Below are positions 1,858 through 26,866 of a DNA stretch of 34,351 nt, one piece after another (position 1 is the stretch's first letter; the number at the start of each line of letters is the position of its first letter). Source of the stretch: a virus; the IMG/VR virus record IMGVR_UViG_3300034145_000016, positions 1-34,351 of that record; one strand, 5' to 3'. The position numbers and the translations under genes are program-made. Below the pieces are notes generated by a model. It saw only the letters and a list, made by a program, of their open reading frames with translations, was not told the DNA's origin and did not search any database.

Positions 1858-2136
1858 ATGGCAGGACCAGGCGGAGCGCGACGGGGCGCAGGGCGAAAGA
1901 AGGGAGGCACCAACCGGGTAACGCAGGAGGCCCAGGAAAGGGCTGCCGCGACCGGAGAGTTGCCCCTCGACTTCTTGCTCCGCATCATGCGCGACGAGCA
2001 TGCGGACGAGGCTAAACGTATAGACTGCGCGAAGGCGGCGGCACAATATGTCCACCCAAAGCTTAGCGCGATCGATGCCAACGTTACAGGGCAAATCAGC
2101 GTCGGAGATCTCCTCGACGCTGTTGCCGACCCGTGA
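1858..2136 (+). CDS. Terminase small subunit-like protein
   Basis: The start is ATG 1858, giving 92 residues. The N-terminus MAGPGGARRGAGRKKGG is the basic, glycine-rich lead common in small terminases and short DNA-binding phage proteins. It is followed by a helical segment ending AAAQYVHPKLSAIDANV. Small terminases recognise the packaging site and feed DNA to the large subunit. The gene directly precedes and overlaps the large terminase by 89 bases in another frame. The ribosome site is weak (A-rich). The protein is shorter than the P22 small terminase, so assignment relies on position and the N-terminal pattern. Confidence 0.65.
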   Translation: MAGPGGARRGAGRKKGGTNRVTQEAQERAAATGELPLDFLLRIMRDEHADEAKRIDCAKAAAQYVHPKLSAIDANVTGQISVGDLLDAVADP

Positions 2137-5840: not shown

Positions 5841-6070
5841 CGCAAGCGGCAACCGCCATGTGGCTGGGGTATCAAGGCGCCGATGCGGTGGACCAGATGA
5901 ATGCCGAACACGACCCGCTCCACCGAGACTTATGCAACTGGCTCGGCCTGACCAGTCACTCGATGCGAATGGCCGCTGGTGAGACGCTGACGCTAAACGA
6001 GCGCCGCCTTGCCGCACTTGAAGAGGATGCGGTTCTTCATGTGCAGCGATTCAGACAGATGAGCCGGTGA
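5837..6070 (+). CDS. Small phage protein, unknown
   Basis: ATG 5837 overlaps the portal stop (ATGA), and its own stop overlaps the next start (GTGA at 6067), which supports real coupled translation. The 77 residues form mostly helices with histidines and charged residues (DQMNAEHDPLHRDLCNWLGL, about 19-38). No signal peptide or membrane span is seen. No family recognised; it is part of the head gene operon. Confidence 0.65.
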   Translation: MTQAATAMWLGYQGADAVDQMNAEHDPLHRDLCNWLGLTSHSMRMAAGETLTLNERRLAALEEDAVLHVQRFRQMSR

Positions 6071-6312
6071 CTCGCGAGGAATATGACGGCTGGCTGGCCG
6101 ATCCTGTCACCCGTTGGGTGTTCCGAGGCCTGGAACGAGCCGCGGCTGCCGAGCAGGCGGAATGGCAGCGGGTGTCCTGGAGCAACGGGGTGGCGAACCA
6201 GAGGGTGTTGGACCAGCTCAGAGACCGCGCCTCGACGCTGCTGGAGCTTGTTGAGAACGATTTCGAGACATGGACGAAATGGAACGGGGAAGCCGGTGAC
6301 GATGACGAATGA
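6067..6312 (+). CDS. Small phage protein, unknown, GTG start
   Basis: GTG 6067 overlaps the previous stop. The 81-residue acidic helical protein (TREEYDGWLADPVTRWVF at the start, NDFETWTKWNGEAGDDDE at the end) belongs to a type often seen between portal and capsid in tailed phages. No function is known to me. The last 11 bases overlap the GroES-like gene. The short, acidic, tryptophan-containing form may suit an assembly helper, but this is not shown. Confidence 0.65.
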   Translation: MTREEYDGWLADPVTRWVFRGLERAAAAEQAEWQRVSWSNGVANQRVLDQLRDRASTLLELVENDFETWTKWNGEAGDDDE

Positions 6313-6619
6313 GAGCGGGATCAACCCGCTCGGCGCTTACGTGCTGATCGCCCTGCCTGCAGCGCAGGAGAAGATCGGCAGCGTGTTCATCCCCACAGAG
6401 GTAGCGGACAAGGACCGTTACGGCACGCAGCGTGGAACGGTGCTGGCAGCAGGGCCGAGCGTCGGTCGCGACGATAAAGGTCCGAATGGCCACGATGTGG
6501 AGCCTGGGCAGCAAGTCGCCTTCGCCCGCTACGCTGGCACGATGGTCAAGGGCTCGGACGGCGAAGACTACCGCCTCATCATGGATGTGGACGTAAAGGG
6601 GATTTATCATGGCGGTTAG
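6302..6619 (+). CDS. GroES-like cochaperonin (Cpn10 fold)
   Basis: The 105-residue product follows the Cpn10 pattern. It has an early strand LGAYVLIALPAAQEKIGSVF, a mobile-loop-like stretch IPTEVADKDRYGTQ, then RGTVLAAGP, and a later VEPGQQVAFARYAGT followed by EDYRLIMDVDVKGIY. Host GroES shows RGEVLAVG, VGDIVIF and YLIMxExDILA at the matching places. Such proteins cap GroEL for folding of capsid proteins, as T4 gp31 does. ATG 6302 is used; a GTG at 6296 is also in frame. Position between portal and scaffold/capsid fits a role in capsid folding. It overlaps its neighbours at both ends. Confidence 0.8.
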   Translation: MTNESGINPLGAYVLIALPAAQEKIGSVFIPTEVADKDRYGTQRGTVLAAGPSVGRDDKGPNGHDVEPGQQVAFARYAGTMVKGSDGEDYRLIMDVDVKGIYHGG

Positions 6620-6929
6620 CTCGATCAGCGGCTCGGATCGCCAGGCAGGGCGATATCGAACCATCGGCGGTCGGCCTGTGGCGGTATTGGCTTCAGAGAG
6701 CGACCCGGCAGGCTCTTCGGAAGCAGTCACTCCTCACGACACGAATCCATTGGCTGGCGGTCCGACCCGGTCGCTCTACGTCGGCGTTGCGGGCGATATC
6801 GTCGTGCGTCTCGAAGACGACACCACCGACCGCACGTTCAAGGCGGTCGCTGTCGGATATCATCCGCTCCGCGTGACCCATGTGCGCGCTACCGGAACCG
6901 CAGCGACGGATATTGTCGCCCTGTTCTAA
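6609..6929 (+). CDS. Spike base protein-like (RCAP_Rcc01079 type)
   Basis: The protein has 106 residues. The pattern is characteristic: a flexible N-terminus, AVTPHDTNPLAGGPTRSLYV, then GVAGDIVVRLEDD, VAVGYHPLRVTHVRATGTAA and TDIVALF. It matches the small beta-rich proteins annotated as spike base in Rhodobacter gene transfer agents and phages. They are thought to sit on capsids or tail spikes. Here the gene lies in the head module between the cochaperonin and the scaffold, which would suit a capsid spike or decoration base. The start overlaps the GroES-like gene by 11 bases. Confidence 0.7.
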   Translation: MAVSSISGSDRQAGRYRTIGGRPVAVLASESDPAGSSEAVTPHDTNPLAGGPTRSLYVGVAGDIVVRLEDDTTDRTFKAVAVGYHPLRVTHVRATGTAATDIVALF

Positions 6930-6985
6930 GCATTCCCGATAGCGGGATGAGCCGGCCCGGCGAGGGGCATCCAGAGGAAAGCCAG

Positions 6986-7798
6986 ATGGCAGATGAAGAA
7001 CTGGCCGGCGCCTTGCCGGCCCAGGATGGCGGCGTTGCGCCGGTCGACCCCGGTGATCCCGTTGTCGATCATGGCGAAGCCCAGCCACCCAAAACAGTGG
7101 AAGATTTTGCGCGGGAACGCGGATGGAAGCCGAAAGAGGAGTTTTCCGGCAACGCCGATGATTGGCGGCCGGCCGAGGATTTCATTGCCTTCGGTATGGA
7201 CCGGAACAAGAACCTAATCAGCGACGTGAAGCATCTCCGCGACACCACCGAACGGATGGCGCGGACCACTGCCGAGCTCACTGCCCAGGCCGTGGAGCGG
7301 GCGCGTTCCGAGGAGCGCGCGAGGCTTGAGGACATTCATCGCCGCGCTGTGGAGGAGGGGGACCAACCCACCGCCTTTCAAGCGATGCAGAAGGTGGCTG
7401 AACTGTCACAGCCGGCATCGGTGCAGGCTCCATCTGGACCGCCTCCCGAGGTTCAGTCCTGGGTGCAGCGCAATACGTGGTTCAACAGTGACCCGCTTGC
7501 CAATGCCAGGGCGATCGAGGTGGCCGAGCGGCTCAAGCACCTGCCGACACCCGACCAGCTTGCCCAGGTGGAGCGCGCGATCCGCAAGGAGTTCCCGGAG
7601 CACTTTCCATCCCCCGCTAAGCAGCCGGCCTCGGTCGCCGCGCCCGGCAGCCGCGTGGCACCCGTGGGCGGCCGCAAGAAGGGATTCGCGGACCTCCCCG
7701 GAGATGCCCAGCAAGTGGCGCGGGAGATGGTTCGCAAGGGCATCATCAAGTCGACGGATGCCTATGTCGAACAGTTTTTTGAGCAAGGAGCGGCTTGA
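6986..7798 (+). CDS. Capsid scaffolding protein
   Basis: ATG 6986 is chosen for GAGGAAA at 6974-6980; an ATG at 6947 lacks such a site. The 270-residue acidic, helix-rich protein has the signature of podovirus scaffolds. It opens with a disordered acidic N-terminus, then ARERGWKPKEEFSGNADDW and RPAEDFIAFGMDRNKNL, and a long charged coiled coil about residues 70-130. It ends with a basic C-terminal region (GGRKKGFADL) that could bind the coat. It directs procapsid assembly and leaves before maturation. Position just ahead of the capsid genes agrees. The stop overlaps the next start (TGATGG). Confidence 0.8.
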   Translation: MADEELAGALPAQDGGVAPVDPGDPVVDHGEAQPPKTVEDFARERGWKPKEEFSGNADDWRPAEDFIAFGMDRNKNLISDVKHLRDTTERMARTTAELTAQAVERARSEERARLEDIHRRAVEEGDQPTAFQAMQKVAELSQPASVQAPSGPPPEVQSWVQRNTWFNSDPLANARAIEVAERLKHLPTPDQLAQVERAIRKEFPEHFPSPAKQPASVAAPGSRVAPVGGRKKGFADLPGDAQQVAREMVRKGIIKSTDAYVEQFFEQGAA

Positions 7799-8259
7799 TG
7801 GCCGAAGCACAGGAGGCCCGTAGGGGCAGGCACGGGGAAGACACCCAGGGACGGCGCGAGCGGCGCCGGAAAGAGGGGCAGGAGGGGCTTGACGGTCTCA
7901 AATTGCCGATCCCGGAGTGGGTGTTCGACAAATACCCCGAAGGCTCATTCGTTCACCGCTGGTTTCGGGCCGAGAAGGGCCGGATTTACTCGAAGACGCA
8001 GGCCGATGATTGGGACCCCGTAGATGGGGTCGATCACGTGCCTGGAGCTCATGATCAGCACGGCAACGCTGTCGATCACGTGCTCTGCGTCAAATATCGC
8101 GACTGGTGGGAGGCAGACCGCGCCAAGGCCGATGTGCGGCGGCGCGAAACCGAGGACCAGATGCGCCGGGGGGTCGTAGCCGGAAAGGGCGACGATGCCG
8201 GCGAGGCGGGCCTCACTTCCGAAATTTCTTACGCGAGCGGCTTGAACCGCCTGCGTTGA
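7798..8259 (+). CDS. Phage protein of unknown function beside capsid genes
   Basis: The start is ATG 7798, overlapping the scaffold stop, and the product is 153 residues. The N-terminus is very basic (EARRGRHGEDTQGRRERRRK). It is followed by a compact region, IPEWVFDKYPEGSFVHRWFR, then GRIYSKTQADDWDPVDG, of a type found next to capsid genes in related phages. The middle carries VDHVPGAHDQHGNAVDHVLC. No enzyme motif is seen. A virion component or assembly factor is the best guess. Confidence 0.65.
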   Translation: MAEAQEARRGRHGEDTQGRRERRRKEGQEGLDGLKLPIPEWVFDKYPEGSFVHRWFRAEKGRIYSKTQADDWDPVDGVDHVPGAHDQHGNAVDHVLCVKYRDWWEADRAKADVRRRETEDQMRRGVVAGKGDDAGEAGLTSEISYASGLNRLR

Positions 8260-8271
8260 GGAGACATCAAA

Positions 8272-8850
8272 ATGGCAAATGCAAATGCACCGTTCGGCCT
8301 GAAGCCGATCCGGGGCGCTTTCAGCCAGCCCTATAACGACGGCGCTCAGCCTTATGCGAAGGCGGCGGCTGACACCGCGGTTGTTCGCTACGGCGATCCC
8401 GTGGTCGTGACCGGGGCCGAGACGGCTGAAGGCGTTCCGATTGTTACCCTCGCCACGGCGGGGTCCACCAACGCCATCACCGGCATCGCAGTGGGCTTTC
8501 GCCCGCTCGGTGTCTCGGAATGGCTTGGCTATGCTCCCGCTTCCACCCTGTATGAGGTCCTCGTCACGGACAATCCCGATGGCGAGTATCTTATCCAGGA
8601 GGACAGCGACGGCGGCGCCTTGGCGGCTGGTTCCACCGGCCTCAATGCGGCGATCGTCTTTGGCGCGGCGACGGGCAACCAGTCGGCAGCCATGCTGGAT
8701 TCGAGCACGGCCGCTACCACCGCTGGCCTTCAGGTCCGCATCCTAGGTCTCGCTCAGATTCCGGGCAACGCGATCGGCAACTATGCCGTGTGGCGCGTCC
8801 GGCTGAACAACGTGACCACCACCCCCAACGCGGCTTCGACCGGCGCCTAA
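8272..8850 (+). CDS. Capsid decoration/cement-like structural protein
   Basis: The protein has 192 residues, with GGAGAC (8260-8265) as ribosome site. It starts MANANAPFGLKPIRG, the usual opening of small structural proteins placed directly before the major capsid gene. The rest is beta-rich, with alanine, threonine and glycine: YGDPVVVTGAETAEGVPIVT, GIAVGFRPLGVSEW and a C-terminal WRVRLNNVTT. Such proteins are found as head cement or decoration proteins. The intergenic gap to the capsid gene is only 13 bases. Confidence 0.7.
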   Translation: MANANAPFGLKPIRGAFSQPYNDGAQPYAKAAADTAVVRYGDPVVVTGAETAEGVPIVTLATAGSTNAITGIAVGFRPLGVSEWLGYAPASTLYEVLVTDNPDGEYLIQEDSDGGALAAGSTGLNAAIVFGAATGNQSAAMLDSSTAATTAGLQVRILGLAQIPGNAIGNYAVWRVRLNNVTTTPNAASTGA

Positions 8851-8863
8851 GGAGGGCTGAGAC

Positions 8864-9763
8864 ATGCTTATTACTCGTTCAGTCCATCCGAAGTTGCTGC
8901 TTCCGGGTGTGAAGGCGTTCTTCGGCGACAAGTATAAGGACTATCGCCCGATCTGGTCGCAGATCTTCACCAAGGAGACGAGCGACCGCGCCTACGAAGA
9001 GGTTGTGGAAGAGCGGGGTTTCGGCCTTGCTCAGGTGAAGTCGGAGGGGCAGTCCGTCCCTTACGACACCACGGGCGAAGGCCCGACCACGCGGTTCACG
9101 CATGTGAACTATGCGCTCGGGTTCATCGTCACCGAAGAGGAGGTGGACGATAATCTCTATCAGGATCGCGCATTGAGCCGGGCCGGCGCGCTTGCCCGGT
9201 CGATGCGGATCACGAAAGAGGTGGTCCACGCCAACGTGCTCAATCGCGCGTTCAGCACTTCCTACCCTCTAGGCGACGGCGCGGCGATGATCTCCGCGTC
9301 CCACCCGACCACGGCGGGCAACCAGTCGAACCTCCTCACGGCGGCCGATCTTACCGAGGCGTCTCTTGAAGATGCCATGATCCGTATCGCAAACATGAAG
9401 GATGCCCGCGGGCTGAACATCATGACGCGGGCGGTGACTCTGGTGGTGTCGCCTTCGGAGATGTTCAACGCCTACCGCATTCTCAATGCCGTGGGGCGCA
9501 GCGGGGTCGAGACCAACGATCCCAACGCGATCCGCGACATGGGGATGGCACCCAAGGTGGTGGTCAATCCCTACCTGGACGATACCGACGCCTGGTTCCT
9601 CATCACCGATGTGGACCAGGGGCTGATGTCGATCCAGCGCAAGGCCCTACGCTTTGCCGAGGATGGGGATTTCGACACCGGCAACCTGAAGCACAAGGCG
9701 CAGGAGCGGTATTCCGCCGGCGCCGCTGACTTCCGGGCAATCGTCGGCTCGACCGGCTCCTAA
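8864..9763 (+). CDS. Major capsid protein, Mu gpT-like
   Basis: This 299-residue protein is preceded by AAGGAGGG (8849-8856), a near-perfect ribosome site, as expected for the most abundant virion protein. Signature stretches are FGDKYKDYRPIWSQIF (about 21-36), SVPYDTTGEGPTTRF, the central AMISASHPTTAGNQSN with LTEASLEDAMIRI, and the late MAPKVVVNPYLDDTDAWFLI. These match the Mu gpT-type HK97-fold head protein. It builds the icosahedral shell with the scaffold and cement proteins encoded just upstream. No N-terminal delta domain or protease is seen, in keeping with a separate scaffold. Confidence 0.9.
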   Translation: MLITRSVHPKLLLPGVKAFFGDKYKDYRPIWSQIFTKETSDRAYEEVVEERGFGLAQVKSEGQSVPYDTTGEGPTTRFTHVNYALGFIVTEEEVDDNLYQDRALSRAGALARSMRITKEVVHANVLNRAFSTSYPLGDGAAMISASHPTTAGNQSNLLTAADLTEASLEDAMIRIANMKDARGLNIMTRAVTLVVSPSEMFNAYRILNAVGRSGVETNDPNAIRDMGMAPKVVVNPYLDDTDAWFLITDVDQGLMSIQRKALRFAEDGDFDTGNLKHKAQERYSAGAADFRAIVGSTGS

Positions 9764-15393: not shown

Positions 15394-18300
15394 TGTTCCA
15401 AGACCCGTTCGCCGATCTGATCCCGAATCAGCCGGCCCAGCCGGGCGTGCCGCAGATGGTGGTCCCGCCGCGTCCACGCCAGGCCACTCCACAGACGCCG
15501 CAAGAGCAGCAGGCGACCGAACTTCGATCCGTACGCACGGAGCAGGAAATTGCGGCCCACCCAGTCAGTGTCGAGGGAACGCAGCTAGCCAACGAGGATC
15601 GAAGGCGCCAGCTTCGGCGCGAAGCGGCCGGCACGACCCTCCCCCGCGAGGCCATTGACGAGCTGAGCAAGCTACGCACCGCGTTCAGCGGTTTCAATTC
15701 GTCCGTGGGCGGGTTCATGCCGGACTATTCTGGACCAGGATCCACCTTGGAAAACACGGCTCAGGAATGGCTGGGCACCGGCACCCCCGGCCAGCGCGAC
15801 TGGTGGTCCAACTTCTACGCGAACGACATGCAGCTGCGCAATGTGATGTTTGGCGCCTCCCTCACGCCCAGCGAGCAGGCTTCATGGGAACGCGCCACCA
15901 TTCACCCCGGAATGACTGCCGACGAAATCCGCCGCAACCTCAACCGCCGCCGGGAAATGGCTATGGGGGCAATGCGTCGGCGAGCGGAGGCTTTTGTCGC
16001 GAACGGGTGGAATGCAGACGCTGTCCGAGCCACCCTCGGAGAGTTTCAGGGTCTGCTGGAAGGTCAGGATATTCCTCCGCCTCCCAACCCGATCAACGGC
16101 CTAGCCGTCGAGGCCGGGATTGCACAGGCGCAGCGCGTCACTGCTGGCGCCGGCGGCCCTTCCCATCCTGGGGAGGGCGTTCCCGCCAATCCCGCGATAG
16201 CGCCTCCTTCTGGCATCGTTCAGGGGCAGGGCGGCACTCCGATCGTCGGTGACACTCTGACCGACGAAGAGCGGGCTGTGATCATTGAGGCATCCCAGAC
16301 GGCGAGCAGCCCCGAAGAGTTCCGCCGCATGGTTCAGGAGCGCACCGGACTAGACGTCCCAAACTATCGAGAACTGTTCGACAGCCGGGGCAATCGGCGA
16401 CCGGTAAACAGCAACTTTCAGCTGCAGACCCCCGACATCACGGATGCGCGAGGTGGAGACGCAGCGGCCGACGAGGCGGCCATGATGCAGGCCCTCTTGA
16501 GCAGCGGACCCGGCGGTGCGGTTTTCGGTACTGTGCGCGCCATCGGCGGGGATGAAAGCGCCATGGCCTTCGGGCGCGGCGTGGCAGACACCGGCACCTT
16601 CGGCCTAGCGGATGAAATTGTCGCGGGCGGGACCACCCTCTTTGGCGGGGGCACCTATGATCATAATCTAGCCCGAGAGCGGGCAATCAACGCCTATGAT
16701 TACGAGAACAATTTCGGGGCGCGGCTGGGAGGCCAGTTTCTGGGCGGCGCCGCGATGCCCTTTCCGGCAGCGCGAACTGGAGAAGCGCTGAGTGCTCTGG
16801 CCCGTTATGCGCCGCAGATGCGCGCTGGGGCGGCATATTCAGCAGGATACGGCTTTGGGAGTGGCGATGGAAATGTGGCCACCCGAGGCGCAAATGCGCT
16901 GTTGATGGGGGCGGCGGGCGCTGCTGCGCCGCCCGTGCTGGGCGGCATTATCAATGCCGGAGGCCGCGCCGTGAATGCATTGCGCGGCACGTCTGCGCGA
17001 GCGGTTGGCCAGCCAAATGAGCAGATCATTCAGGCTTTCCAAGAAGAGGGTGTCGATTTTGCCCGCCCCTTCGCAGACCCAACACGCCATCGGCAAATGC
17101 GTGTTCTGGAAGCTACCCAAGGCGGCAATGATGCCGTGACCGGGAGTGTCGAGGCCACTCGCGCCGGACTGCAGGGGCGCGTTGCTCAGATGGGCGCAAC
17201 GGGTAGTCGGCAGACCGCAGACGAGATGGGCTCTACCATTCGAGGGGCGGTCGAGCGGCGGGTTGAGGCGCAACGCACTCGAGCCCGCACCTTTTACGAG
17301 CGAGCGGAGAGGGAGAGCGCTGGCGCTGCCATTGAGCCGCGTGAGCTTGTTCGAACGCTCGACGCCAGTATTGCCAATCTTCGCCGCAACCCTAACACCA
17401 ATAAGGCCACCTTGAGCGAACTACTCCAGGTTAGGGCCGACCTGGTCGATGACGCGGGAAACATCATCCCAAAAACTGTTCAGGATATTCAGAACATCCG
17501 AGAGGGCATCGCCGGCGGGGTCAACCAGGCCACGCTTCGCACGTCCCGCTCTGAGCGCATTCTCAACGCGGCCCTTCATGCTGGAAAACGTGACGTTGAG
17601 CGCGATCTTGGCCGCCAAGCCCCTGGAGCACTTACCTTGTACCGGCAGGGTGATGAAATATGGGCGGGGATGCACCGGGATAGTCATCAGCTCCTGGAGC
17701 GACTGACCGGCCCTGCCGACAATCCGATCAGCGGCGAGCAGGTACTTGCGAGGGTTCGCACCATGATGTCCAATCAGGGAGATGCCCGCCGCTACCAGCG
17801 CGTCCTTAGAACCTTGGCTCCCGCTGAGCACCGGGACTACGTCGCAACGTTGACGGATACGATTGGCCGTCGCTCGGCAGACGAGGACTTTTCACCTGCG
17901 CTATTTGTCTCCCAGACTAAAGACTGGTCTGACGAGGCGCTGCGCACGACCTTTGGGCGTGAAGGCGCCCGTTCAATTACAAACCTCCGCACAGCTTCTC
18001 AAGCGTTCCGAGACACGACCGGCAACCCGAATAATGTTCGGTCCGGGCTCGGTGTACAAGCCACACTCGGCGGCGTGGTCAACTTTCGTTCAATTGTGGG
18101 CAATGCGCTCGGCATGGCCGCAGGGGCGGTCACGGGAGGTCCAACGGGGGCCGCCGTTGGGTCCGCGCTTGGCCACGCTGTCGGCATGGGCCTAGAAAGG
18201 CGCGCCAACCGCCTGTCGGCACAGGCTCTGATGAATCCGGACATCAGCCGGTGGCTGGGCCGTGCTGCCCGCGCGGAAAGTCGAGAGCAGTCTCAAACCT

Positions 18301-18464
18301 TGACTAGGCGGCTGTCCGGAATTGCGCAGCGAAACCCTGCCTTTGCCGCTGAACTTGAACCGCTGATCAACTCCTTGGTCGCCGCGAATGACAATGTGGT
18401 CGGTTACAGCGGCCGTGCCGCGGCTTCAGGAGATGAACGGCGCAATCAGCAGGAACGCCCCTAA
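15393..18464 (+). CDS. Large internal/ejection protein (gp16 position)
   Basis: With 1023 residues this is the largest gene. The start ATG 15393 shares a base with the peptidase stop (TGATG). It has a proline/glutamine-rich N-terminus and a domain with LTPSEQASWERATIHPGMTA and DEIRRNLNRRREMAMGAMRR (about 155-200). A glycine-rich middle includes the hydrophobic GAAGAAAPPVLGGIINAGGR, and a long helical region with RTRARTFYERAERESAGAAI follows. A late membrane-prone segment (GNALGMAAGAVTGGPTGAAV) lies near the end. The final protein of the P22 ejection set is the membrane-active gp16, which this matches in order, size class and build. I see no separate lytic domain. Confidence 0.75.
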   Translation: MFQDPFADLIPNQPAQPGVPQMVVPPRPRQATPQTPQEQQATELRSVRTEQEIAAHPVSVEGTQLANEDRRRQLRREAAGTTLPREAIDELSKLRTAFSGFNSSVGGFMPDYSGPGSTLENTAQEWLGTGTPGQRDWWSNFYANDMQLRNVMFGASLTPSEQASWERATIHPGMTADEIRRNLNRRREMAMGAMRRRAEAFVANGWNADAVRATLGEFQGLLEGQDIPPPPNPINGLAVEAGIAQAQRVTAGAGGPSHPGEGVPANPAIAPPSGIVQGQGGTPIVGDTLTDEERAVIIEASQTASSPEEFRRMVQERTGLDVPNYRELFDSRGNRRPVNSNFQLQTPDITDARGGDAAADEAAMMQALLSSGPGGAVFGTVRAIGGDESAMAFGRGVADTGTFGLADEIVAGGTTLFGGGTYDHNLARERAINAYDYENNFGARLGGQFLGGAAMPFPAARTGEALSALARYAPQMRAGAAYSAGYGFGSGDGNVATRGANALLMGAAGAAAPPVLGGIINAGGRAVNALRGTSARAVGQPNEQIIQAFQEEGVDFARPFADPTRHRQMRVLEATQGGNDAVTGSVEATRAGLQGRVAQMGATGSRQTADEMGSTIRGAVERRVEAQRTRARTFYERAERESAGAAIEPRELVRTLDASIANLRRNPNTNKATLSELLQVRADLVDDAGNIIPKTVQDIQNIREGIAGGVNQATLRTSRSERILNAALHAGKRDVERDLGRQAPGALTLYRQGDEIWAGMHRDSHQLLERLTGPADNPISGEQVLARVRTMMSNQGDARRYQRVLRTLAPAEHRDYVATLTDTIGRRSADEDFSPALFVSQTKDWSDEALRTTFGREGARSITNLRTASQAFRDTTGNPNNVRSGLGVQATLGGVVNFRSIVGNALGMAAGAVTGGPTGAAVGSALGHAVGMGLERRANRLSAQALMNPDISRWLGRAARAESREQSQTLTRRLSGIAQRNPAFAAELEPLINSLVAANDNVVGYSGRAAASGDERRNQQERP

Positions 18465-18545
18465 GGTGCAGAGTCGCCTTCGCTGACTCCACCCGCCGAT
18501 CAGCCATGCCGCGATCGGGTAGGTTAGGAACCAGAATAGGGGCAT
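18426..18545 (-). CDS. 39-residue membrane microprotein, antisense to late genes
   Basis: On the minus strand, ATG (18545-18543) directly follows the TAA of its partner with no gap. The product starts MPLFWFLTYPIAAWLIGGW, has a short basic turn SQRRR, and ends LCTLGAFLLIAPFIS. This gives two short hydrophobic segments with a positive turn, a hairpin membrane topology. Its last 39 bases run antisense to the 3' end of the large ejection gene. No family recognised. It looks like part of a two-gene leftward unit in an otherwise rightward late region. Confidence 0.45.
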   Translation of the reverse strand: MPLFWFLTYPIAAWLIGGWSQRRRLCTLGAFLLIAPFIS

Positions 18546-18720: not shown

Positions 18721-18748
18721 AAGCCGCTCCTAACCGGGCGGCTTTTTG
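18721..18748 (+). terminator. Rho-independent terminator
   Basis: AAGCCGC (18721-18727) pairs with GCGGCTT (18738-18744), loop of ten bases, followed by TTTT. It would end the head/ejection transcript 19 bases before the tailspike ATG. The tailspike would then need read-through or its own promoter. Because of the weak A-tract on the other strand it may also help end nothing leftward. Confidence 0.7.
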
Positions 18749-18766
18749 CATTTGGAGCCGAGCCGA

Positions 18767-20761
18767 ATGGCCCTTTTCATTCCGCCGAACAGCCGAGCCA
18801 CCGACGCGAACGCGAACGCGCTCAGCGGTGCTGTGTGGCACTTCTACACCACCGGCACCACCAATCCTGCTGCCGTCTATACCAGCGCGGCGCTCAACGT
18901 CGCCCATGGCCCATCCGTGACCGCCGACGCCGGCGGCAAGTTTCCCAACATCTTCCTCGATCCCGCCGTGACCTATCGCGCCATCCTGAAGACGGCCGGC
19001 GGGTCGGTGCTGCTGGACGTGGACCCCTACGACAAGGCGGTTGGACAGGGCGATCTCTCCGCCTCAGCTGGTTCCGGTCTCGTAGGCCACATCGCCGCCG
19101 GTGCCGATGCCGTGGCTCGCAGCGTTCAGGCCAAGCTGCGCGAGTTCGTCTCGGTCAAGGATTTCGGGGCGCTTGGCAACGGCTCCACAGTCGACACCCT
19201 CGCCATCAATGCGGCTATCGCATCGCTGACCGCTGGACAGACCCTCTACTTCCCCGCCGGCATCTACCTGGTCGATAACAGCGACCTTCAGGAGACTGCT
19301 GGCGGCACAGTCAGCACCGTCCCCCTGCCGGATGGCGCGAACCTTCTGATGGAAGGCGGGGCATGGCTCAAGCGCGCTCCGGCCGACACGGGCGGGCCGA
19401 TCTTCATCACCGCCACCGGCAATAACATCATCCAGGCCAATATCGACGGCGACGAGTTCCCCCTGACCGGCGGCATTTCCGGCACGTGGCGGACCGCCGG
19501 TGGGGTGGGCATTTCCGCAGCCAGCGCGTCGAACGTGACGCTGATCAACTGCCGCTTCCGCAACCTCACCTACGGGGTCGAGGCTATCGGGTTGACGCAC
19601 TGGAAAATCCTCAACAGCGAGTTCTACCGGATCAAGCTGAGCGGGTGCCTGCTTCGCGGCAACGACGCCATCGGGGCCGCCCACAACCTGGTCGCCATCT
19701 GCTATTTCGAGAGCATGGGCGATACCGCAGTGGCGCTCCACTACGTCACCAGCTCGTCGGTCGTCGCCTATAATACCATCGCGCTCTGTCACGCCAAGGA
19801 CACGCAGATGCGCGAGGACGGCTACGCCTTCGACATCGAGGCGTCTGTCATGCCCGGCACCCACCACCACAACCGGTTTGCCGACCTCACCGTTGAGCAG
19901 GTGACGGACAGCGGCAAGGTCCAGGGCGGCGCGACGATGAACGCCAACATCACCGACAGCGCGATCACCAACTGCATCTTGAAGGGCAACGGGACGATCG
20001 AGAGCTACGGCGTCTCGATCACCTCCACCACAGATGTCAGGGTTACGAACAATCTGATCGAGGGCTTCCGGGGCGGTGCCATCTACGCCGATGGCGCGAT
20101 CCGGCCATTGATCGACGGCAACCAGATCAAGGATTGCGGAGACTCGGGCTCGATCATCAACAATACGATCCTGCTGAGTGCGTTCCTCGGCAACACGGCA
20201 CCGATGGTGACGGGCAATCGCATCACCTATTCGGCTGGCTATGCAGGCGCCGGCGCGTCCTTAGCTGCGATCTCCGGACGCTATTTCAACGCCCTCATCC
20301 CAGACGACGCAGTGGTGCGCGGGAACCTGATCGAGGGGCCGGCGGGGATCGCCGTCAGCTTCTTCGGCTTCTCCGGGGCTGCCAAGGTCGGCACGCTGTA
20401 TGTTGAGGGCAATTATGCTTTCGGCGTCACCGCCGCGCCGTTCCAGGTCAATTGGAACACCGGCGGTCGGATCCAAGGCAACCGCACCGACGTCGGCAGC
20501 GGGTTCAACCTCGCCAATGTTGCGGCAGCTACGATCATCCGCGACAATGACAGTCACAAGACCGAAGCCTGGGGCACGAGCGCGGCGATTGCGAGCGGCT
20601 CGACCATCGCCCACGGACTCGCCGTTACTCCGACCAGCTACCGCGCCACGCCGACCTCCACCGGGGCAACCGACGTGTGGATCACGGCGGACGCCACCAA
20701 TCTGACGGTCAATTTCGGCGGCGGCGGAAGCCACGCCTTCTCCTGGGAGGCGCGGGCATGA
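18767..20761 (+). CDS. Tailspike, right-handed beta-helix (pectate lyase-like) receptor-binding protein
   Basis: The 664-residue start is ATG 18767 (GGAG at 18754-18757). Three parts are visible. The N-terminal particle-binding region is about 1-95 (ALFIPPNSRATDANANALSG, then FLDPAVTYRAILKTAGG). The entry to the beta-helix is VSVKDFGALGNGSTVDT (128-144) with GQTLYFPAGIYLVD. A long set of rungs follows with repeated N-x-I/V and G-N motifs (VVAYNTIALC, VTNNLIEGF, VRGNLIEGP). The C-terminal end is STIAHGLAVTPTSYRATPTS with a SHAFSWEARA finish. It should bind, and probably cut, the host surface polysaccharide. Its cluster of small genes downstream is coupled by ATGA. Confidence 0.9.
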   Translation: MALFIPPNSRATDANANALSGAVWHFYTTGTTNPAAVYTSAALNVAHGPSVTADAGGKFPNIFLDPAVTYRAILKTAGGSVLLDVDPYDKAVGQGDLSASAGSGLVGHIAAGADAVARSVQAKLREFVSVKDFGALGNGSTVDTLAINAAIASLTAGQTLYFPAGIYLVDNSDLQETAGGTVSTVPLPDGANLLMEGGAWLKRAPADTGGPIFITATGNNIIQANIDGDEFPLTGGISGTWRTAGGVGISAASASNVTLINCRFRNLTYGVEAIGLTHWKILNSEFYRIKLSGCLLRGNDAIGAAHNLVAICYFESMGDTAVALHYVTSSSVVAYNTIALCHAKDTQMREDGYAFDIEASVMPGTHHHNRFADLTVEQVTDSGKVQGGATMNANITDSAITNCILKGNGTIESYGVSITSTTDVRVTNNLIEGFRGGAIYADGAIRPLIDGNQIKDCGDSGSIINNTILLSAFLGNTAPMVTGNRITYSAGYAGAGASLAAISGRYFNALIPDDAVVRGNLIEGPAGIAVSFFGFSGAAKVGTLYVEGNYAFGVTAAPFQVNWNTGGRIQGNRTDVGSGFNLANVAAATIIRDNDSHKTEAWGTSAAIASGSTIAHGLAVTPTSYRATPTSTGATDVWITADATNLTVNFGGGGSHAFSWEARA

Positions 20762-22792: not shown

Positions 22793-23059
22793 ATGGCAAC
22801 AGCCCCTGAATTGCCGATCGAAGTCGGCCCCTCCGCCGTCCCCGACACTGCGAAGGCCGCTGGTCGGTATCTAGTCGCAACCGCCGTAGCATTTGCTGTC
22901 GGTAAGGGCTGGGTTGATGCCGAGAACGCGGAAGGCATCGTTACCGCCGGCGTCGGCCTGATCGCCATTGGCTGGGGCCTCTACGCGACCTTCCGGCGCA
23001 AGTCTCAGCTCGTGGTGACGGCGGACGCCGCGCCAAACAGCGTGGCGGTGGTGAAGTGA
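22793..23059 (+). CDS. Small holin-like membrane protein
   Basis: ATG 22793 follows GAAGGAGA (22779-22786). The 88-residue protein has two hydrophobic segments: about 27-38 (a weaker AGRYLVATAVAFAVGKGWVD) and 48-66 (GIVTAGVGLIAIGWGLYATF). A basic RRKSQ and a flexible tail follow. Size and layout match small two-span phage holins, but an R-type structural pilot protein is not excluded. Its GTGA end couples it to the Ntn hydrolase gene. Confidence 0.6.
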   Translation: MATAPELPIEVGPSAVPDTAKAAGRYLVATAVAFAVGKGWVDAENAEGIVTAGVGLIAIGWGLYATFRRKSQLVVTADAAPNSVAVVK

Positions 23060-23490
23060 CCACCATCGCAACGGACGGCAAGAGCATGGCGGGGGACGGC
23101 AAGTCGCAAACGCGGGGCACGGTCTGCTCGCTGAACAGCGTGAAGGTCCACCGGATGCGCGACGGCGGGCTGTTCGCAGCTTGTGGATCATCCGGATGGG
23201 GCGACAAGCTGCAAGCTTGGTACGAAGACGGCCAGAGCGGCAGTCCACCCACTGGGGAGGACGGTGACGGTTTCATACTCCTGAGGCTCGACGGCTCAAT
23301 CTGGCAAGGCGGTCAGGACGGGCTCGCAGTCCAGATCGAAGCGCCATTCGCGATCGGATCGGGCATGGACCTCGCCATCGGGGCGATGGACCAAGGCGCC
23401 TCGCCTGAACAGGCCGTGGCGATTGCAGCGCAGCGCGACCCCGGCACCGGCGGCACCATCACCATCCTTCATCTGGAGAGCCAAACATGA
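23056..23490 (+). CDS. HslV/proteasome beta-like Ntn hydrolase
   Basis: GTG 23056 overlaps the previous stop. The 144-residue product begins (M)TTIATDGKSMAGDGKSQT, the start of HslV-like peptidases, in which a Thr after Met becomes the N-terminal nucleophile. VKVHRMRDGGLFAACGSS, the later FAIGSGMDLAIGAMDQGASP and EQAVAIAAQRDPGTGG are the conserved strand and helix features of the T1 family. No regulatory HslU-like ATPase is seen nearby. It could trim virion or host proteins. That a proteasome-like unit lies inside a lysis module is notable; the fold is clear, the target is unknown. Confidence 0.8.
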   Translation: MTTIATDGKSMAGDGKSQTRGTVCSLNSVKVHRMRDGGLFAACGSSGWGDKLQAWYEDGQSGSPPTGEDGDGFILLRLDGSIWQGGQDGLAVQIEAPFAIGSGMDLAIGAMDQGASPEQAVAIAAQRDPGTGGTITILHLESQT

Positions 23491-23837
23491 AACCCATTCT
23501 CATAGCCCTAGCGCTCGCCTGTAGCGGGTGTAGCCTCACCGATCTGCCGGCACCCAATAGCGTTGCCGATGCGACCGTGCTTGACGAGAAGCTCGGTATC
23601 GCCGTTGAGACCACCTACGCCGCTGCTGCGCGCACCGCCGCCCTCGCTATTCGAGCGGGGCTGGTGGACGCTGCTGGGGCTCGGAGGATCAGCCTGCTCA
23701 ACGAACAGGCGCGGGCAGCAGTCCTTCTGACCCGCCAAGCCTATGACGCCGGGAACGCAGTGACCTACACGGCCGCCGCGTCTCAAGCGCTCGGCCTGAT
23801 CAACAGCATCATTCGAGCCGCAGGAGGCCAGCCATGA
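23487..23837 (+). CDS. Outer-membrane lipoprotein, o-spanin candidate
   Basis: ATG 23487 is coupled by ATGA. The 116-residue protein has a short signal (MKPILIALALACSGC) with a cysteine at 15 after S-G, a lipobox-like site though position -3 is a cysteine in place of L/V/I. The mature part is helical and alanine-rich (LDEKLGIAVETTYAAAARTA, NEQARAAVLLTRQAYDAGNA). A lipoprotein late in the lysis module fits an o-spanin that joins the one-span protein at 21246-21662. The lipobox deviation lowers certainty. Confidence 0.6.
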   Translation: MKPILIALALACSGCSLTDLPAPNSVADATVLDEKLGIAVETTYAAAARTAALAIRAGLVDAAGARRISLLNEQARAAVLLTRQAYDAGNAVTYTAAASQALGLINSIIRAAGGQP

Positions 23838-24034
23838 ACCTCACCACTATCCTCAGCGCAATGAAGCTGGTCGGGGCCGCCACGCCCGCATTCAAGGCCC
23901 TGTTCGACCAGGTCCTGCCGCTCTTCTCCTCCAGCGATCAGACCAAGCTGAAAGACGCCTACCAGCGTGCACGGACCGAAAGCGATGCGGCGGACGCTGA
24001 TCTGCGGGATGCGGTCAGCGGGGCTCAGCAGTAG
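23834..24034 (+). CDS. Small helical protein, end of rightward late operon
   Basis: ATG 23834 overlaps the lipoprotein stop (ATGA). The 66-residue protein has a mildly hydrophobic N-terminal helix (LTTILSAMKLVGAATPAFKA) and a charged helical end (SSSDQTKLKDAYQRARTESD). No signature. It is the last rightward gene before the mostly leftward accessory block, 21 bases from the convergent stop of the next gene. Confidence 0.55.
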   Translation: MNLTTILSAMKLVGAATPAFKALFDQVLPLFSSSDQTKLKDAYQRARTESDAADADLRDAVSGAQQ

Positions 24035-24055: not shown

Positions 24056-24286
24056 TTACACCTCGCCACGGTAGCGCATCGCCTTCCGCGTGCAGAGGAC
24101 TGACTGTACAGCAGCTCCAATCGCTAAGACGACTGGGAGAGCGACCCACCACCCCGCTTCAAACCACCAACAGAAGGCCGCGGCGAGCAGCCAGCCCCAG
24201 AACGAGTTGGCAAACCGCTGCGCTAGGCGGTCTTGGCGATGAGCCGCCGCCTCAAGCCAGCCTCCGCTAATTTCCCCGCTTGCCAT
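24056..24286 (-). CDS. Small two-span membrane protein
   Basis: The start is ATG (24286-24284) with AGGAAGAG (24301-24294) upstream on the minus strand; longer starts at 24316 and 24373 exist but lack such a site. The 76-residue protein has a charged N-terminal part (LEAAAHRQDRLAQRF) followed by two hydrophobic stretches (WGWLLAAAFCWWFEAGWW, VALPVVLAIGAAVQSVLC). A basic end, RKAMRYRG, follows. A moron-type membrane protein is likely, role unknown. Confidence 0.6.
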   Translation of the reverse strand: MASGEISGGWLEAAAHRQDRLAQRFANSFWGWLLAAAFCWWFEAGWWVALPVVLAIGAAVQSVLCTRKAMRYRGEV

Positions 24287-24314
24287 CGCGTTCTCTTCCT
24301 GTTCCATACCAGCC

Positions 24315-24572
24315 ATGCCCGAATCGCCCGACTTTATCACGGTCACCCCGGAAGAGCTTAGGCGAGACTTCACGGTCTGGCTGAAGGTGATGCCGAAGTC
24401 ACTGTGGCGGTCGTACCTGGCGATGCTGGAGGTCGACCCGAGGCGGCGGAACCCTGAGGATCGGGTGGACCCTCATGCGCTCCTGGGCGAATATCTGGCG
24501 GAGCAATTCGTCAGGGCGAAGTGGACAGCGCCATATCCGAAGCCGACGCCGCCACGGGCGAGGAATAGCTAG
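24315..24572 (+). CDS. Small protein, unknown, rightward inside the leftward block
   Basis: ATG 24315 starts 29 bases from the divergent small gene, and its stop TAG interlocks with the stop of the convergent SLOG gene (CTAG). The 85-residue protein (VTPEELRRDFTVWLKVMPKS, LAMLEVDPRRRNPEDR, then a Pro-rich basic end) has no known signature. The upstream ribosome site is weak. It reads like a real compact alpha-helical protein rather than a shadow. Confidence 0.5.
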   Translation: MPESPDFITVTPEELRRDFTVWLKVMPKSLWRSYLAMLEVDPRRRNPEDRVDPHALLGEYLAEQFVRAKWTAPYPKPTPPRARNS

Positions 24573-24952
24573 CCGGGCGACGGCTTCGGCCGGTGGCCAC
24601 TATCGCGTTCGTCACGGACCAAGACTTCCCGCCGGTATGCCTGCTCGACCGCGTTATTTGTGCCCCTGTCCCCGGGGAACGCTATCAACTTGTAGATTGG
24701 CAGAAGGTCTAACATCCACCCGTTGCGACGTGGCCCGGCAGCCTTTCCGAAAAAGCCCCATAGCGCCTCCATGCCGATGCAGGGGACGCCGTTTTCGCGA
24801 CACCACCGCTTGGCAAGCAAGTCAGCACCACCCTTGGGACATTCCCCTTGCACGACCACGCCCGGCCGCTCCTCATCTAGGACGCGCTTGACGTGCTGAT
24901 AGTCGCCGTAATCACGGCCACCCGTGACAGCATAAAAGATCGGCTGGTTCAT
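24569..24952 (-). CDS. SLOG/DUF2493-type protein
   Basis: The 127-residue start is ATG (24952-24950), overlapping the stop of the small gene upstream. The Rossmann-like SLOG pattern is visible: an initial strand YAVTGGRDYGDYQHVKRVLD, VVVQGECPKGGADLLAKRWC (the GxxxGAD binding loop), the AAGPRRNGWML segment and LIAFPGDRGTNNAV. Members are thought to bind nucleotides or nucleotide-derived ligands, and related SLOG proteins act in phage-host conflict. The actual ligand is not known here. The last gene of the leftward operon. Confidence 0.8.
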   Translation of the reverse strand: MNQPIFYAVTGGRDYGDYQHVKRVLDEERPGVVVQGECPKGGADLLAKRWCRENGVPCIGMEALWGFFGKAAGPRRNGWMLDLLPIYKLIAFPGDRGTNNAVEQAYRREVLVRDERDSGHRPKPSPG

Positions 24953-25089
24953 GCGACTTTATAGCGCATGGGCTGTTGCATGGGAAGCGCCTTGATGCTA
25001 CGCAGGGTGTCGGTTGCGGTTGTCGCAGGCCCCGCCACCTTGCTCGCCAAGGCGCTGGCACCCCGGCAATCGCAACCTCCTAACACCAC
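24949..25089 (-). CDS. Possible 46-residue ORF between nuclease remnant and SLOG gene
   Basis: GTG (25089-25087) lies inside the nuclease remnant in another frame, behind GGGGAGG at eight bases. The product has VLGGCDCRGASALASKVAGP and ends LPMQQPMRYKVA; its TGA overlaps the ATG of the SLOG gene. The coupling and the ribosome site argue for translation. Content is not diagnostic, and the same frame is open further upstream to 25329. Confidence 0.35.
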   Translation of the reverse strand: MVLGGCDCRGASALASKVAGPATTATDTLRSIKALPMQQPMRYKVA

Positions 25090-25325
25090 GGCTCGCGCCT
25101 CCCCGTCCACGTCCGGGCAAGGCCCTCCGCCACAAGCCTGTCCCCCACGCTCCGCCCATGCTGCACCACCACTCTCAGCCGGCGTCCGTAGCGGTCTCGA
25201 TCCCGCCCCAACCTCACCAGCGTAAACGGCTGTCTCAGCAGCTCGGCAAGCCTGTCGCGGGCTCGGCTGCGAAGCAGTGGCAGCCCGGTCCGCTTCAGCG
25301 GAAGCGCCGCAATTATCTGGCACAA
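25080..25325 (-). pseudogene. Thermonuclease (SNase-like) remnant, N-terminal half missing
   Basis: The 81 visible codons start at a cysteine in the position of the conserved Cys of these enzymes. They continue RARDRLAELLRQPFTLVRLG, RDRDRYGRRLRVVVQHGRSV and GDRLVAEGLARTWTGRREPW, the clear C-terminal half of phage and bacterial thermonuclease-like proteins. The first half, with the VxDGDT and calcium/active-site arginine region, is absent. Directly upstream in frame is a TGA, and no ATG fits (only TTG). It is probably inactive, though a start behind GGAGAT might still produce it. A different frame from ATG 25329 is open across the same DNA and has the better ribosome site. Confidence 0.6.
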
Positions 25326-25338
25326 TCATATCTCCTCA

Positions 25339-25531
25339 TCAGGCAAGGGTAAGGGGGTTAGGCGGTATCCGCTTCACCGTGATCTTGACGTCAAACTCGA
25401 TGCCATCGAGCGTGAATGAGCAGTTGCCCACCGTCCCCGGAACTGCCTTGTCTACGACAGCGACGATCAGCGGTCTCCATGATCCGTTCCTCGATAAACT
25501 CTGCGACCTGGAATGCTGGCGCGTGCATCAT
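25339..25531 (-). pseudogene. Small gene split by an apparent +1 frameshift
   Basis: From ATG (25531-25529), behind AAGGGA, one frame reads MHAPAFQVAEFIEERIMET and then loses protein-like character (stop at 25391). The next frame, without ATG, reads PLIVAVVDKAVPGTVGNCSF, then TLDGIEFDVKITVKRIPP, to a stop at 25339. Skipping one base near 25474 joins them into one protein of about 64 residues. Either the gene is broken, the sequence has an error, or a programmed shift or a CTG start (25470, behind GGAG) is used. No family recognised. Confidence 0.5.
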
Positions 25532-25567
25532 CTCGTCCCTTCTAAGCTTCGGTGGTCGTGGAGTAGG

Positions 25568-26053
25568 TCATGCTGTTGGCCAATTCCGCAGATCCTCCGG
25601 GCGATAGGCTTGCGGCAGGCTGTAGACGCTGAAGATTGTGCGCCCCTCCACCACAGGCCTCTCCCCGCGCTCAAGGCAACGTCTCAGCCACTTGGAAAAC
25701 AGCAGCTCCCAGCGTTCTGGCATCGGTTCCGGATCGTCTGCCAGCGTTTTGCCGGCTATCGTCTTTGTCCAAACATCCCGGTAGAACTGCTCGACAATAG
25801 GTAGCATTGCATCGTGCAGTGCCTTCTTCATGCTCTCCTTGGCGGAGGCAGGAATCGCCGCTTCAATGTCGAACGGAAGCTCTGCCGTGCAGCCGAGCAC
25901 GTTACCTTGAACCGTGACGGTATATACTGCGCCGGGAGTGCCGCACGGGCGCTCTAGCTTTGGGAGGCGTTCGTTGATCTCGCGCCTGCGCTGGCAAACG
26001 CCCTCCCGCGCCTCCCGGCGGCGCCGATCTTTCTCCGGACTCCAGTTGCCCAT
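25568..26053 (-). CDS. Accessory phage protein, unknown, 161 residues
   Basis: ATG (26053-26051) shares bases with the upstream stop (TAATG). The N-terminus is highly basic (PEKDRRRREAREGVCQRRRE). A beta segment follows, VYTVTVQGNVLGCTAELPFD, then a helical part (SAKESMKKALHDAMLPIVEQ) and PERWELLFSKWLRRCLERGE. It ends VYSLPQAYRPEDLRNWPTA. No known signature. Full-length and coupled, so likely functional. Basic head plus mixed core could bind nucleic acid. Confidence 0.6.
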   Translation of the reverse strand: MGNWSPEKDRRRREAREGVCQRRREINERLPKLERPCGTPGAVYTVTVQGNVLGCTAELPFDIEAAIPASAKESMKKALHDAMLPIVEQFYRDVWTKTIAGKTLADDPEPMPERWELLFSKWLRRCLERGERPVVEGRTIFSVYSLPQAYRPEDLRNWPTA

Positions 26054-26235
26054 TAGGACACCCTCCCAACCGGGATGGTCAGAATAGGATCATCCGCTGC
26101 CGCCTCTGGTATCGCACTGGCATCACCAGCACCCCCTTTTCCCGATCCGTTCTCGCCATCTGCTGAAGCAAAACCGCAGAAAGCCGCCATTATCGGCGTC
26201 GGTGGGTACAATGGCATTGTAGGGGGCGGGGTCAT
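26053..26235 (-). CDS. 60-residue proline/glycine-rich small protein
   Basis: ATG (26235-26233) overlaps the TGA of the zinc-finger gene, and its TAA overlaps the next ATG. This chain of overlaps is the main reason to accept it. The product (MTPPPTMPLYPPTPIMAAF, GENGSGKGGAGDASAIP) is low-complexity and probably disordered. No function can be given. Confidence 0.5.
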   Translation of the reverse strand: MTPPPTMPLYPPTPIMAAFCGFASADGENGSGKGGAGDASAIPEAAADDPILTIPVGRVS

Positions 26236-26675
26236 GCTGCTTTCCCGCCCTCGATCACCTCAAGCGGCATCGGCGTGAAGGTGGGGTGCTTTGTGTCCAT
26301 GTGCCGGCGCAAGTTCTCGAACGTCCGGTTGCAGCAGGGGCATACGCCTGCCTTGGCGCGCTTGGTGATGCGGGTGGCGTGGCCTTTGTAGCCGTTGGCG
26401 CGGCGCCGCTCCTTCTCGGCTCGCTCTTCCGCCTCCCGCCGCATGTCCGCCTGATAGGCCACCCGCTGTTCGGCCCGCTGGCGCGCAAGCCGCTCAGCCT
26501 CAAGCTGCGCGAACAGCTTCTGCTCCTTGCTCTCGCCTTGGGGGAAGTGTTGCTGGTGCCCATAGGGACAGTAGAAATTATGCGAGCTGTGCCTCAGCTC
26601 CGCTTCCGTCTGGGCAGCTAGACCGAACTTGACGCTGCATTGGCAGCACTCCACCTCTTTCAGGAAAATACTCAT
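26232..26675 (-). CDS. Zinc-finger protein with Ros-type C2H2 module
   Basis: The start is ATG (26675-26673) behind a perfect GGAGGT at 26686-26681; the longer frame to 26750 crosses the leader. The 147-residue protein has three parts. The N-terminal ribbon has CCQC (C10, C13) and YCPYGH (C36, H40). A charged coiled coil spans about 50-92 (RLARQRAEQRVAYQADMRRE). The C-terminal finger is CPCCNRTFENLRRHMDTKH, spacing Cx2Cx9Hx4H (C112, C115, H125, H130). That spacing is the Ros/MucR type seen in alphaproteobacterial regulators. It is the first gene of the leftward operon and may be its regulator. Confidence 0.8.
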   Translation of the reverse strand: MSIFLKEVECCQCSVKFGLAAQTEAELRHSSHNFYCPYGHQQHFPQGESKEQKLFAQLEAERLARQRAEQRVAYQADMRREAEERAEKERRRANGYKGHATRITKRAKAGVCPCCNRTFENLRRHMDTKHPTFTPMPLEVIEGGKAA

Positions 26676-26680
26676 CGCGA

Positions 26681-26728
26681 ACCTCCAAGCATGAAAGACA
26701 GGGGCCGGAGGTCCAGTTTTGAACCTCC
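26681..26728 (-). promoter_or_regulatory. Candidate SD-sequestering leader with two exclusive hairpins
   Basis: On the leftward RNA the order is GGAGGT (26728-26723), ten bases, ACCTCC (26712-26707), twenty bases, GGAGGT (26686-26681, the Shine-Dalgarno), five bases, ATG. The middle ACCTCC can pair with either GGAGGT. Pairing with the first leaves the SD free; pairing with the last hides it. No ligand or protein can be named. Confidence 0.4.
26699..26720 (+). repeat. Internally deleted second copy of the tRNA-Pro tail
   Basis: CAGGGGCCGGAGGT (26699-26712) repeats exactly at 26831-26844, and the following CCAGTTTT (26713-26720) repeats at 26864-26871. Between them the real tail has 19 more bases (26845-26863). 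So this copy is the tRNA tail with a clean 19-base gap, 130 bases away. Confidence 0.65.
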
Positions 26729-26821: not shown

Positions 26822-26866
26822 TTCGGGAGGCAGGGGCCGGAGGTTCGAATCCTCTCTCCCCGACCA
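26822..26866 (+). other. attR-type junction: 3' half of tRNA-Pro(CGG)
   Basis: The parts are: anticodon loop TTCGGGA (26822-26828, anticodon CGG), stem GGCAG (26829-26833) and variable GGGCC. Next are T-stem GGAGG, loop TTCGAAT (26844-26850), stem CCTCT, acceptor CTCCCCG (26856-26862), discriminator A and encoded CCA (26864-26866). The bases 5' of the loop (GACGT) do not pair with GGCAG and no CGGGGAG acceptor strand precedes, so the 5' half is missing. This is the classic phage crossover inside an anticodon loop; the whole tRNA should be at the left prophage end. A T-rich stretch follows. Confidence 0.85.

What the first reader, a model, noticed from the sequence alone, without database searches (positions are those of the whole stretch)
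24056..26675. Leftward moron cassette at the attR end
Nearly all genes here run opposite to the late genes and are coupled by ATGA/TAATG overlaps. They include a Ros-type zinc finger, a SLOG protein and a membrane protein. Cassettes at this spot often carry anti-phage or host-changing functions. The SLOG protein could sense a nucleotide signal.
Basis: inference. Interest (0 to 1): 0.65.

Follow-up and report, generated by a model that had tools for sequence, protein, structure and literature searches.

The report
Early phage genes split by integration
The small leftward gene block at the right end of this prophage is most likely not a host-serving add-on but the tail of the phage's own early (integrase) operon, cut off from the rest when the phage inserts into a tRNA gene; it is an ordinary arrangement, as in phage lambda, although two of its protein families are still uncharacterised.

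Summary
The right end of a podovirus-like prophage in Sphingomonadaceae-type DNA carries leftward genes just inside attR: a two-zinc-site protein, two orphans, an SNase fragment, a YspA-type SLOG protein and a small membrane protein. It is not one tidy operon. Only two junctions are start/stop overlaps, and a possible rightward ORF (24315-24572) interrupts it. attR is the last 45 bp of tRNA-Pro(CGG), 26822-26866. The "moron" reading is weakly supported. In three circular relatives (one sharing 73% of TerL) a co-directional integrase is followed by a tRNA-like attP and then by such genes (zinc-finger, SLOG or other cargo), converging on late genes. A prophage with a 63%-identical zinc-finger protein shows the same operon split: tRNA-Val plus leftward int at attL, zinc-finger gene inside attR. 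The SLOG and SNase genes also occur upstream of int, beside Erf. The zinc-finger family sits among integrases and recombination genes (21 of 23 integrases co-directional). Base composition is not anomalous. Best reading: a lambda b-region-like, attP-distal tail of the early operon, probably expressed early. The SLOG protein may act on nucleotide immune signals (inferred). The window phage's own int lies outside the record, so the split is inferred from relatives.

The parts
26822..26866 (+). attR: last 45 bp (positions 33-77) of tRNA-Pro(CGG)
   Evidence: 100% identity over 45 bp to intact tRNA-Pro genes of Sphingomonadaceae genomes; about 50 bp conserved across the family
26232..26675 (-). 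147-aa protein: N-terminal zinc ribbon (C10,C13,C36,H40), 60-residue helix, C-terminal C2H2-like finger (C112,C115,H125,H130); first gene inside attR
   Evidence: phrog_33336 E=8e-23; 121 relatives in IMG/VR; invariant Cys/His; AF2 pLDDT 93
26053..26235 (-). 60-aa ORF, no homologue; start overlaps ZnF stop (ATGA), stop overlaps p161 start (TAATG)
   Evidence: sequence; no family
25568..26053 (-). 161-aa orphan protein
   Evidence: coding score; no relative in viral contigs, phages, plasmids or 299 Sphingomonadaceae genomes; AF2 uninformative, pLDDT 42
25391..25531 (-). 46-aa ORF, possibly the N-terminal part of a frameshifted gene
   Evidence: open continuation in another leftward frame; no relatives of a joined product
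25080..25325 (-). SNase-like C-terminal fragment, 81 aa, without the DGDT and DTPE catalytic half
   Evidence: PF00565 21.9 bits over profile 25-78; aligns only with the C-terminal half of full-length relatives
24569..24952 (-). YspA-type SLOG protein (DUF2493/YAcAr), motifs GGRxY, GxCPxxGADxLA, AGPxRN, AFPGxRGTxxxV present
   Evidence: PF10686 E=1.5e-9; 68-80% identity to L139, L140, L247 proteins; invariant motifs
24315..24572 (+). rightward 85-aa ORF interrupting the leftward block; reality uncertain
   Evidence: weak coding score, no homologue
24056..24310 (-). small hydrophobic (membrane) protein, start uncertain (24286, 24310 or 24373)
   Evidence: sequence; weak phrog_28983 E=0.0027

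Best explanation
The block is the attP-distal tail of the phage's leftward early operon, in the same place as the lambda b-region genes ea47/ea31/ea59. In the circular phage, transcription from the early promoter would run through recombination genes and int, across attP, into ZnF-p60-p161-...-SNase fragment-SLOG, and meet the convergent lysis genes. Integration by attP x attB (tRNA-Pro CGG) cuts the operon there: int goes to attL and this tail goes to attR, facing inward. The tail would then be mainly expressed on infection or after excision, and weakly or not at all in the lysogen. Its contents are interchangeable accessory early genes. The zinc-ribbon/C2H2 protein is probably a nucleic-acid-binding early factor. 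The SLOG protein is probably a binder or processor of nucleotide (NAD-derived) signals. Shown here: attR, orientation, the same layout in relatives, homology. Inferred: this phage's own int position, expression timing, both protein functions.
For: Circular contigs (end overlap). G025: int(-) 8174-9397, then 44 bp matching tRNA-Val at 97.7% (attP), then ZnF, a 168-aa gene, an SNase gene, small genes, then convergent lysis genes. G021: int(+) 5239-6201, tRNA-Val attP (97.7% over 44 bp), SLOG 6401-6829, 78% identical to the window's. G008 (TerL 73%): int(+), tRNA-Val-like attP (88% over 34 bp), GIY-YIG, methyltransferase..., SLOG-like remnant (35%, E 7e-7), convergent late genes. Integrated case G084: intact tRNA-Val(CAC) plus int(-) at attL; 55-bp direct repeat at attR 43 kb away; ZnF(-), 63% identical, starts about 115 bp inside attR (window: 146 bp). 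Genes move across int: in the G098 prophage SLOG (69%) and SNase lie upstream of int, in one run with Erf, all leftward. Of 23 integrases found near ZnF in IMG/VR loci, 21 are co-directional and 11 lie within 800 bp (6 upstream, 5 downstream). ZnF neighbours are integrase, helicase, methyltransferase, RecE exonuclease, RusA and HNH families. In actinophages ZnF lies in RecE/RecT or sliding-clamp/RecA operons. GC is not anomalous. Lambda ea47, ea31 and ea59 are listed next to int and are non-essential (PMC10695390).
Against: The window's own int and attL lie outside the record and could not be retrieved, so co-direction of int is inferred from relatives. No transcription data exist. In G275/L205 ZnF lies inside the operon upstream of int, several kb from att, so its place next to attP is not fixed. 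The possible rightward ORF 24315-24572 would separate the membrane gene from the rest. A promoter of a non-sigma70 type between attR and ZnF cannot be excluded.
Confidence: 0.72

Rival explanations
1. A true moron / lysogenic-conversion cassette: an independent transcription unit with its own promoter just inside attR, expressed in the lysogen to protect or alter the host, like gtrABC of P22-like phages.
For: Same genomic spot as gtrABC in epsilon34 (PMC2629481); cargo variable between relatives; a SLOG protein and a membrane protein are plausible defence parts; 146 bp between attR and the first ATG leave room for a promoter.
Against: No defence family, no leftward promoter-like site ahead of the first gene, no compositional anomaly. 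Relatives of the three recognisable genes occur in early/replication regions on both sides of int and in phages taken to be lytic.
Confidence: 0.2
2. A decaying remnant: early accessory genes stranded at attR that are drifting (truncated SNase, frameshifted ORF, orphan ORFs) with little function left.
For: SNase fragment lacks its catalytic half; possible frameshift at about 25.46 kb; p60 and p161 have no relatives.
Against: ZnF and SLOG keep all residues invariant in their families and coding-like codon use; overlaps at ZnF/p60/p161 are intact.
Confidence: 0.08

Closest known systems
Phage lambda b region (ea47-ea31-ea59, beside attP-int)
   Same: Accessory genes on the far side of attP from the other early genes (lambda gene order in PMC10695390; leftward, int-codirectional transcription from general knowledge), ending up inside attR after integration
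   Different: No sequence relation sought or seen; gene content differs; lambda integrates at a non-tRNA site
P22/epsilon34 gtrABC conversion operon
   Same: Lies next to attP/int at the prophage end; phage integrates in a tRNA gene (PMC2629481)
   Different: gtrABC makes O-antigen-modifying proteins; no such genes here
phrog_33336 zinc-finger family (for example Gordonia phage Blueberry gp64, Mycobacterium prophi91-4 gp17)
   Same: Homologous over most of the length (about 37-41% identity), same Cys/His set
   Different: There it sits deep in replication/recombination operons, not at attP; function unknown in all
YspA/YAcAr SLOG proteins of phages (DUF2493, PF10686)
   Same: Same domain and motifs; 78% to G021, 69% to the G098 prophage protein
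   Different: Stand-alone and short (127 aa); no Macro, NADAR or effector partner seen nearby

Membership tests
attP-distal early-operon genes (lambda b-region layout) | Genes lie just inside attR, reading away from att and towards convergent late genes | tested here: met
attP-distal early-operon genes (lambda b-region layout) | int co-directional on the other side of attP | tested here: inconclusive
   Met in relatives G025, G021, G008 and integrated G084; this phage's int is outside the record
attP-distal early-operon genes (lambda b-region layout) | Transcribed with early genes in infection or induction | not testable with these tools
   no expression data
Moron | Own promoter and terminator | tested here: inconclusive
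   no leftward sigma70-like site ahead of ZnF; terminators at chance level; other promoter types not covered
Moron | Base composition differs from the surrounding phage genes | tested here: not met
   62.0% against 63.3 +/- 0.9%, range 61.5-65.3
Moron | Expressed in the lysogen and benefits the host | not testable with these tools
   no RNA or phenotype data
YspA/YAcAr SLOG (PF10686) | Domain above the Pfam cutoff with conserved nucleotide-pocket motifs | tested here: met
   37.9 bits vs 28.2; motifs invariant in a 7-sequence alignment
Ros/MucR regulator | Cx2(C/D)x9Hx4H finger spacing | tested here: met
   C112, C115, H125, H130 invariant in 44 sequences; the Ros spacing itself is from memory
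Ros/MucR regulator | Sequence match to the Ros/MucR family model | tested here: not met
   not among Pfam hits at E<=1 or NCBIfam hits at E<=0.1; it has an additional N-terminal zinc ribbon and long helix
Staphylococcal nuclease (active) | N-terminal catalytic residues (DGDT, DTPE) | tested here: not met
   only the C-terminal half is encoded
Known anti-phage defence system | Match to a PADLOC model | tested here: not met
   no credible hit; best E 0.025 to a coiled-coil region

The most novel reading that the evidence does not exclude
Integration is itself the switch for these genes: they are expressed only when attP is intact, so anti-defence proteins (SLOG acting on NAD-derived immune signals, with the zinc-ribbon/C2H2 protein as an early regulator or DNA-binding factor) are made at entry and after excision but shut off in the lysogen, and attP-adjacent early genes are a general, recurrent class of such entry-only factors.
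Probability: 0.15. Interest if true: 0.6.

Novelty: new member of a known kind. Interest (0 to 1): 0.33.

Why it matters
It warns against reading every gene block at a prophage end as a lysogenic-conversion cassette: such a block can be early phage genes displaced by integration. If attP-distal genes are routinely entry-stage accessory genes, the gap between attP and the late genes is a good place to look for counter-defence proteins in sphingomonad phages, and the widespread, uncharacterised phrog_33336 zinc protein becomes a clear target for study.

Tried and rejected
Host-benefit cargo through PADLOC, NCBIfam and Pfam: nothing beyond SLOG and the SNase fragment. p161 homologues in four collections: none; single-sequence AF2 unusable. 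Joining the two frames around 25.46 kb as one product: no relatives. p85 relatives: none. Structural neighbours of the zinc protein: no significant PDB or BFVD match (best E 0.09), only generic zinc ribbons and C2H2 fingers. PDB by sequence: nothing significant for SLOG or ZnF. Extending the prophage leftward by exact search: none. Counting SLOG hits in 107 of 299 Sphingomonadaceae genomes as relatives: rejected, because most lie in long 300-480-aa frames (as in DprA-like proteins); only G098 is a close one. TerL relatives G001 and G005: no integrase found by my profile, so they do not test the model; G007 has a rightward int near a contig end not shown to be circular. The int-ZnF gaps of L012, L023 and L078 contain tRNA-like stretches by eye, but they were not matched by BLAST to the few tRNAs held, so they are not counted as evidence; L019 and L024 show none.

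Full report
What is there. The window is an IMG/VR virus record of 34,351 bp whose left 26.8 kb is the rightward late half of a podovirus-like prophage: TerL 2048-3691, SU10-like portal 3912-5840, tail spike 18746-20761, CHAP lysin 21659, holin 22793, HslV-like 23056, lipoprotein 23487 and 23834-24034. The right 7.5 kb is host DNA. Its ADH and following genes match many Sphingomonadaceae genomes at 72-77%. The junction is exact: 26822-26866 equals the last 45 bp of tRNA-Pro(CGG), as read from six intact genes.

The block. Between the last late gene and attR lie leftward ORFs: the zinc protein 26232-26675, p60 26053-26235, p161 25568-26053, p46 25391-25531, an SNase fragment 25080-25325, SLOG 24569-24952 and a small membrane protein ending at 24056. 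Only ZnF/p60 (ATGA) and p60/p161 (TAATG) are overlapped junctions. The third ATGA belongs to a 126-aa frame with no homologue that overlaps the SNase frame. A rightward 85-aa ORF lies between SLOG and the membrane gene; its reality is uncertain.

The proteins. SLOG passes PF10686 and keeps all motifs that are invariant in relatives. Homologues are found in 290 phage records, among them Vibrio and N4-like Klebsiella phages that I take to be lytic. Published surveys predict that viral SLOG domains sense or degrade cyclic ADP-ribose-type signals (PMC9503650); this is a prediction, not an assay. The zinc protein belongs to phrog_33336, has over 100 relatives in IMG/VR and invariant Cys/His at two sites. 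A confident model (pLDDT 93) shows an N-terminal ribbon, a 60-residue helix and a C-terminal C2H2-like finger, with no close match in PDB or BFVD. Its finger spacing is Ros-like, but it does not match a Ros/MucR model, so it is not filed there. The SNase piece lacks the catalytic half. p161 and p60 are orphans in everything searched.

Relatives explain the layout. In circular phage G025 the order on one strand is Rad52-like gene, int, attP (44 bp of tRNA-Val, 97.7%), ZnF, 168-aa gene, SNase, small genes, and then the lysis genes from the other side. In circular G021 it is Erf, YqaJ exonuclease..., int, attP (tRNA-Val, 97.7%), SLOG (78%). In circular G008, whose TerL is 73% identical to the window's, it is int, attP (tRNA-Val-like, 88% over 34 bp), GIY-YIG, methyltransferase, small genes, SLOG-like remnant, convergent late genes. 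G084 is an integrated version: tRNA-Val(CAC) and a leftward int at attL, a 55-bp repeat 43 kb away as attR, and a leftward ZnF (63%) about 115 bp inside it. Cutting such an operon at attP produces exactly the picture in the window. Gene names such as Erf, Rad52-like and YqaJ in these relatives are my reading of the sequences; they were not tested against a family library.

The genes are early genes that move around int. In the G098 prophage SLOG (69%) and a full-length SNase lie upstream of int, in one leftward run with Erf; in G022 SLOG overlaps Erf. Near ZnF in IMG/VR loci 23 integrases were found: 21 co-directional, 11 within 800 bp, about equally upstream and downstream. Recognised ZnF neighbours are mostly integrase, helicase, methyltransferase, exonuclease, RusA and HNH families. 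In actinophages ZnF is in RecE/RecT or sliding-clamp/RecA operons.

Against a moron. GC of the block is 62.0%, within the phage's own range (61.5-65.3% for windows of that size). No leftward sigma70-like promoter precedes ZnF, and terminator-like sites are as frequent as in shuffles; sphingomonad promoters may differ, so this is weak.

Verdict. The most likely explanation is a lambda-b-region-like, attP-distal tail of the early operon, separated from it by integration, made of interchangeable accessory genes; some are intact (ZnF, SLOG), some are decaying (SNase fragment, perhaps p46). Shown: anatomy, attR, homology and the layout in four relatives. Inferred: this phage's own integrase position, expression timing and both protein functions.

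Noticed in passing
window 26697-26714 and 26831-26846: A stretch of about 14 bp of the tRNA/att core (CAGGGGCCGGAGGT) is repeated just upstream of the ZnF start, about 134 bp from the copy in attR; perhaps an old att remnant or a recombinase arm site.
   Followed up: no
window 23056-23490: An HslV-like (proteasome-type) hydrolase (phrog_1040) lies in the lysis region; in the relative G008 the homologue lies beside the portal gene and in Sphingomonas asaccharolytica (L188) near a TerL-like gene.
   Followed up: partly
G084 C1, full-prophage coordinates 14368-57300 (L221, L211, L212, L204): A complete 43-kb Sphingomonadaceae prophage in tRNA-Val(CAC) with a 55-bp att repeat; it ends close to a second tRNA gene (tRNA-His).
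   Followed up: yes
phrog_33336 family, alignment A3: A widespread phage protein with the near-invariant motif GVCPCCNRTF...HM..KH and no assigned function; it recurs next to integrases and recombination genes in proteobacterial and actinobacterial phages.
   Followed up: partly
L216 (G025) 6512-7042 and L247 (G098) 18148-18513: SNase-type nucleases with an apparent signal peptide recur in these early operons, sometimes directly beside SLOG or ZnF.
   Followed up: partly
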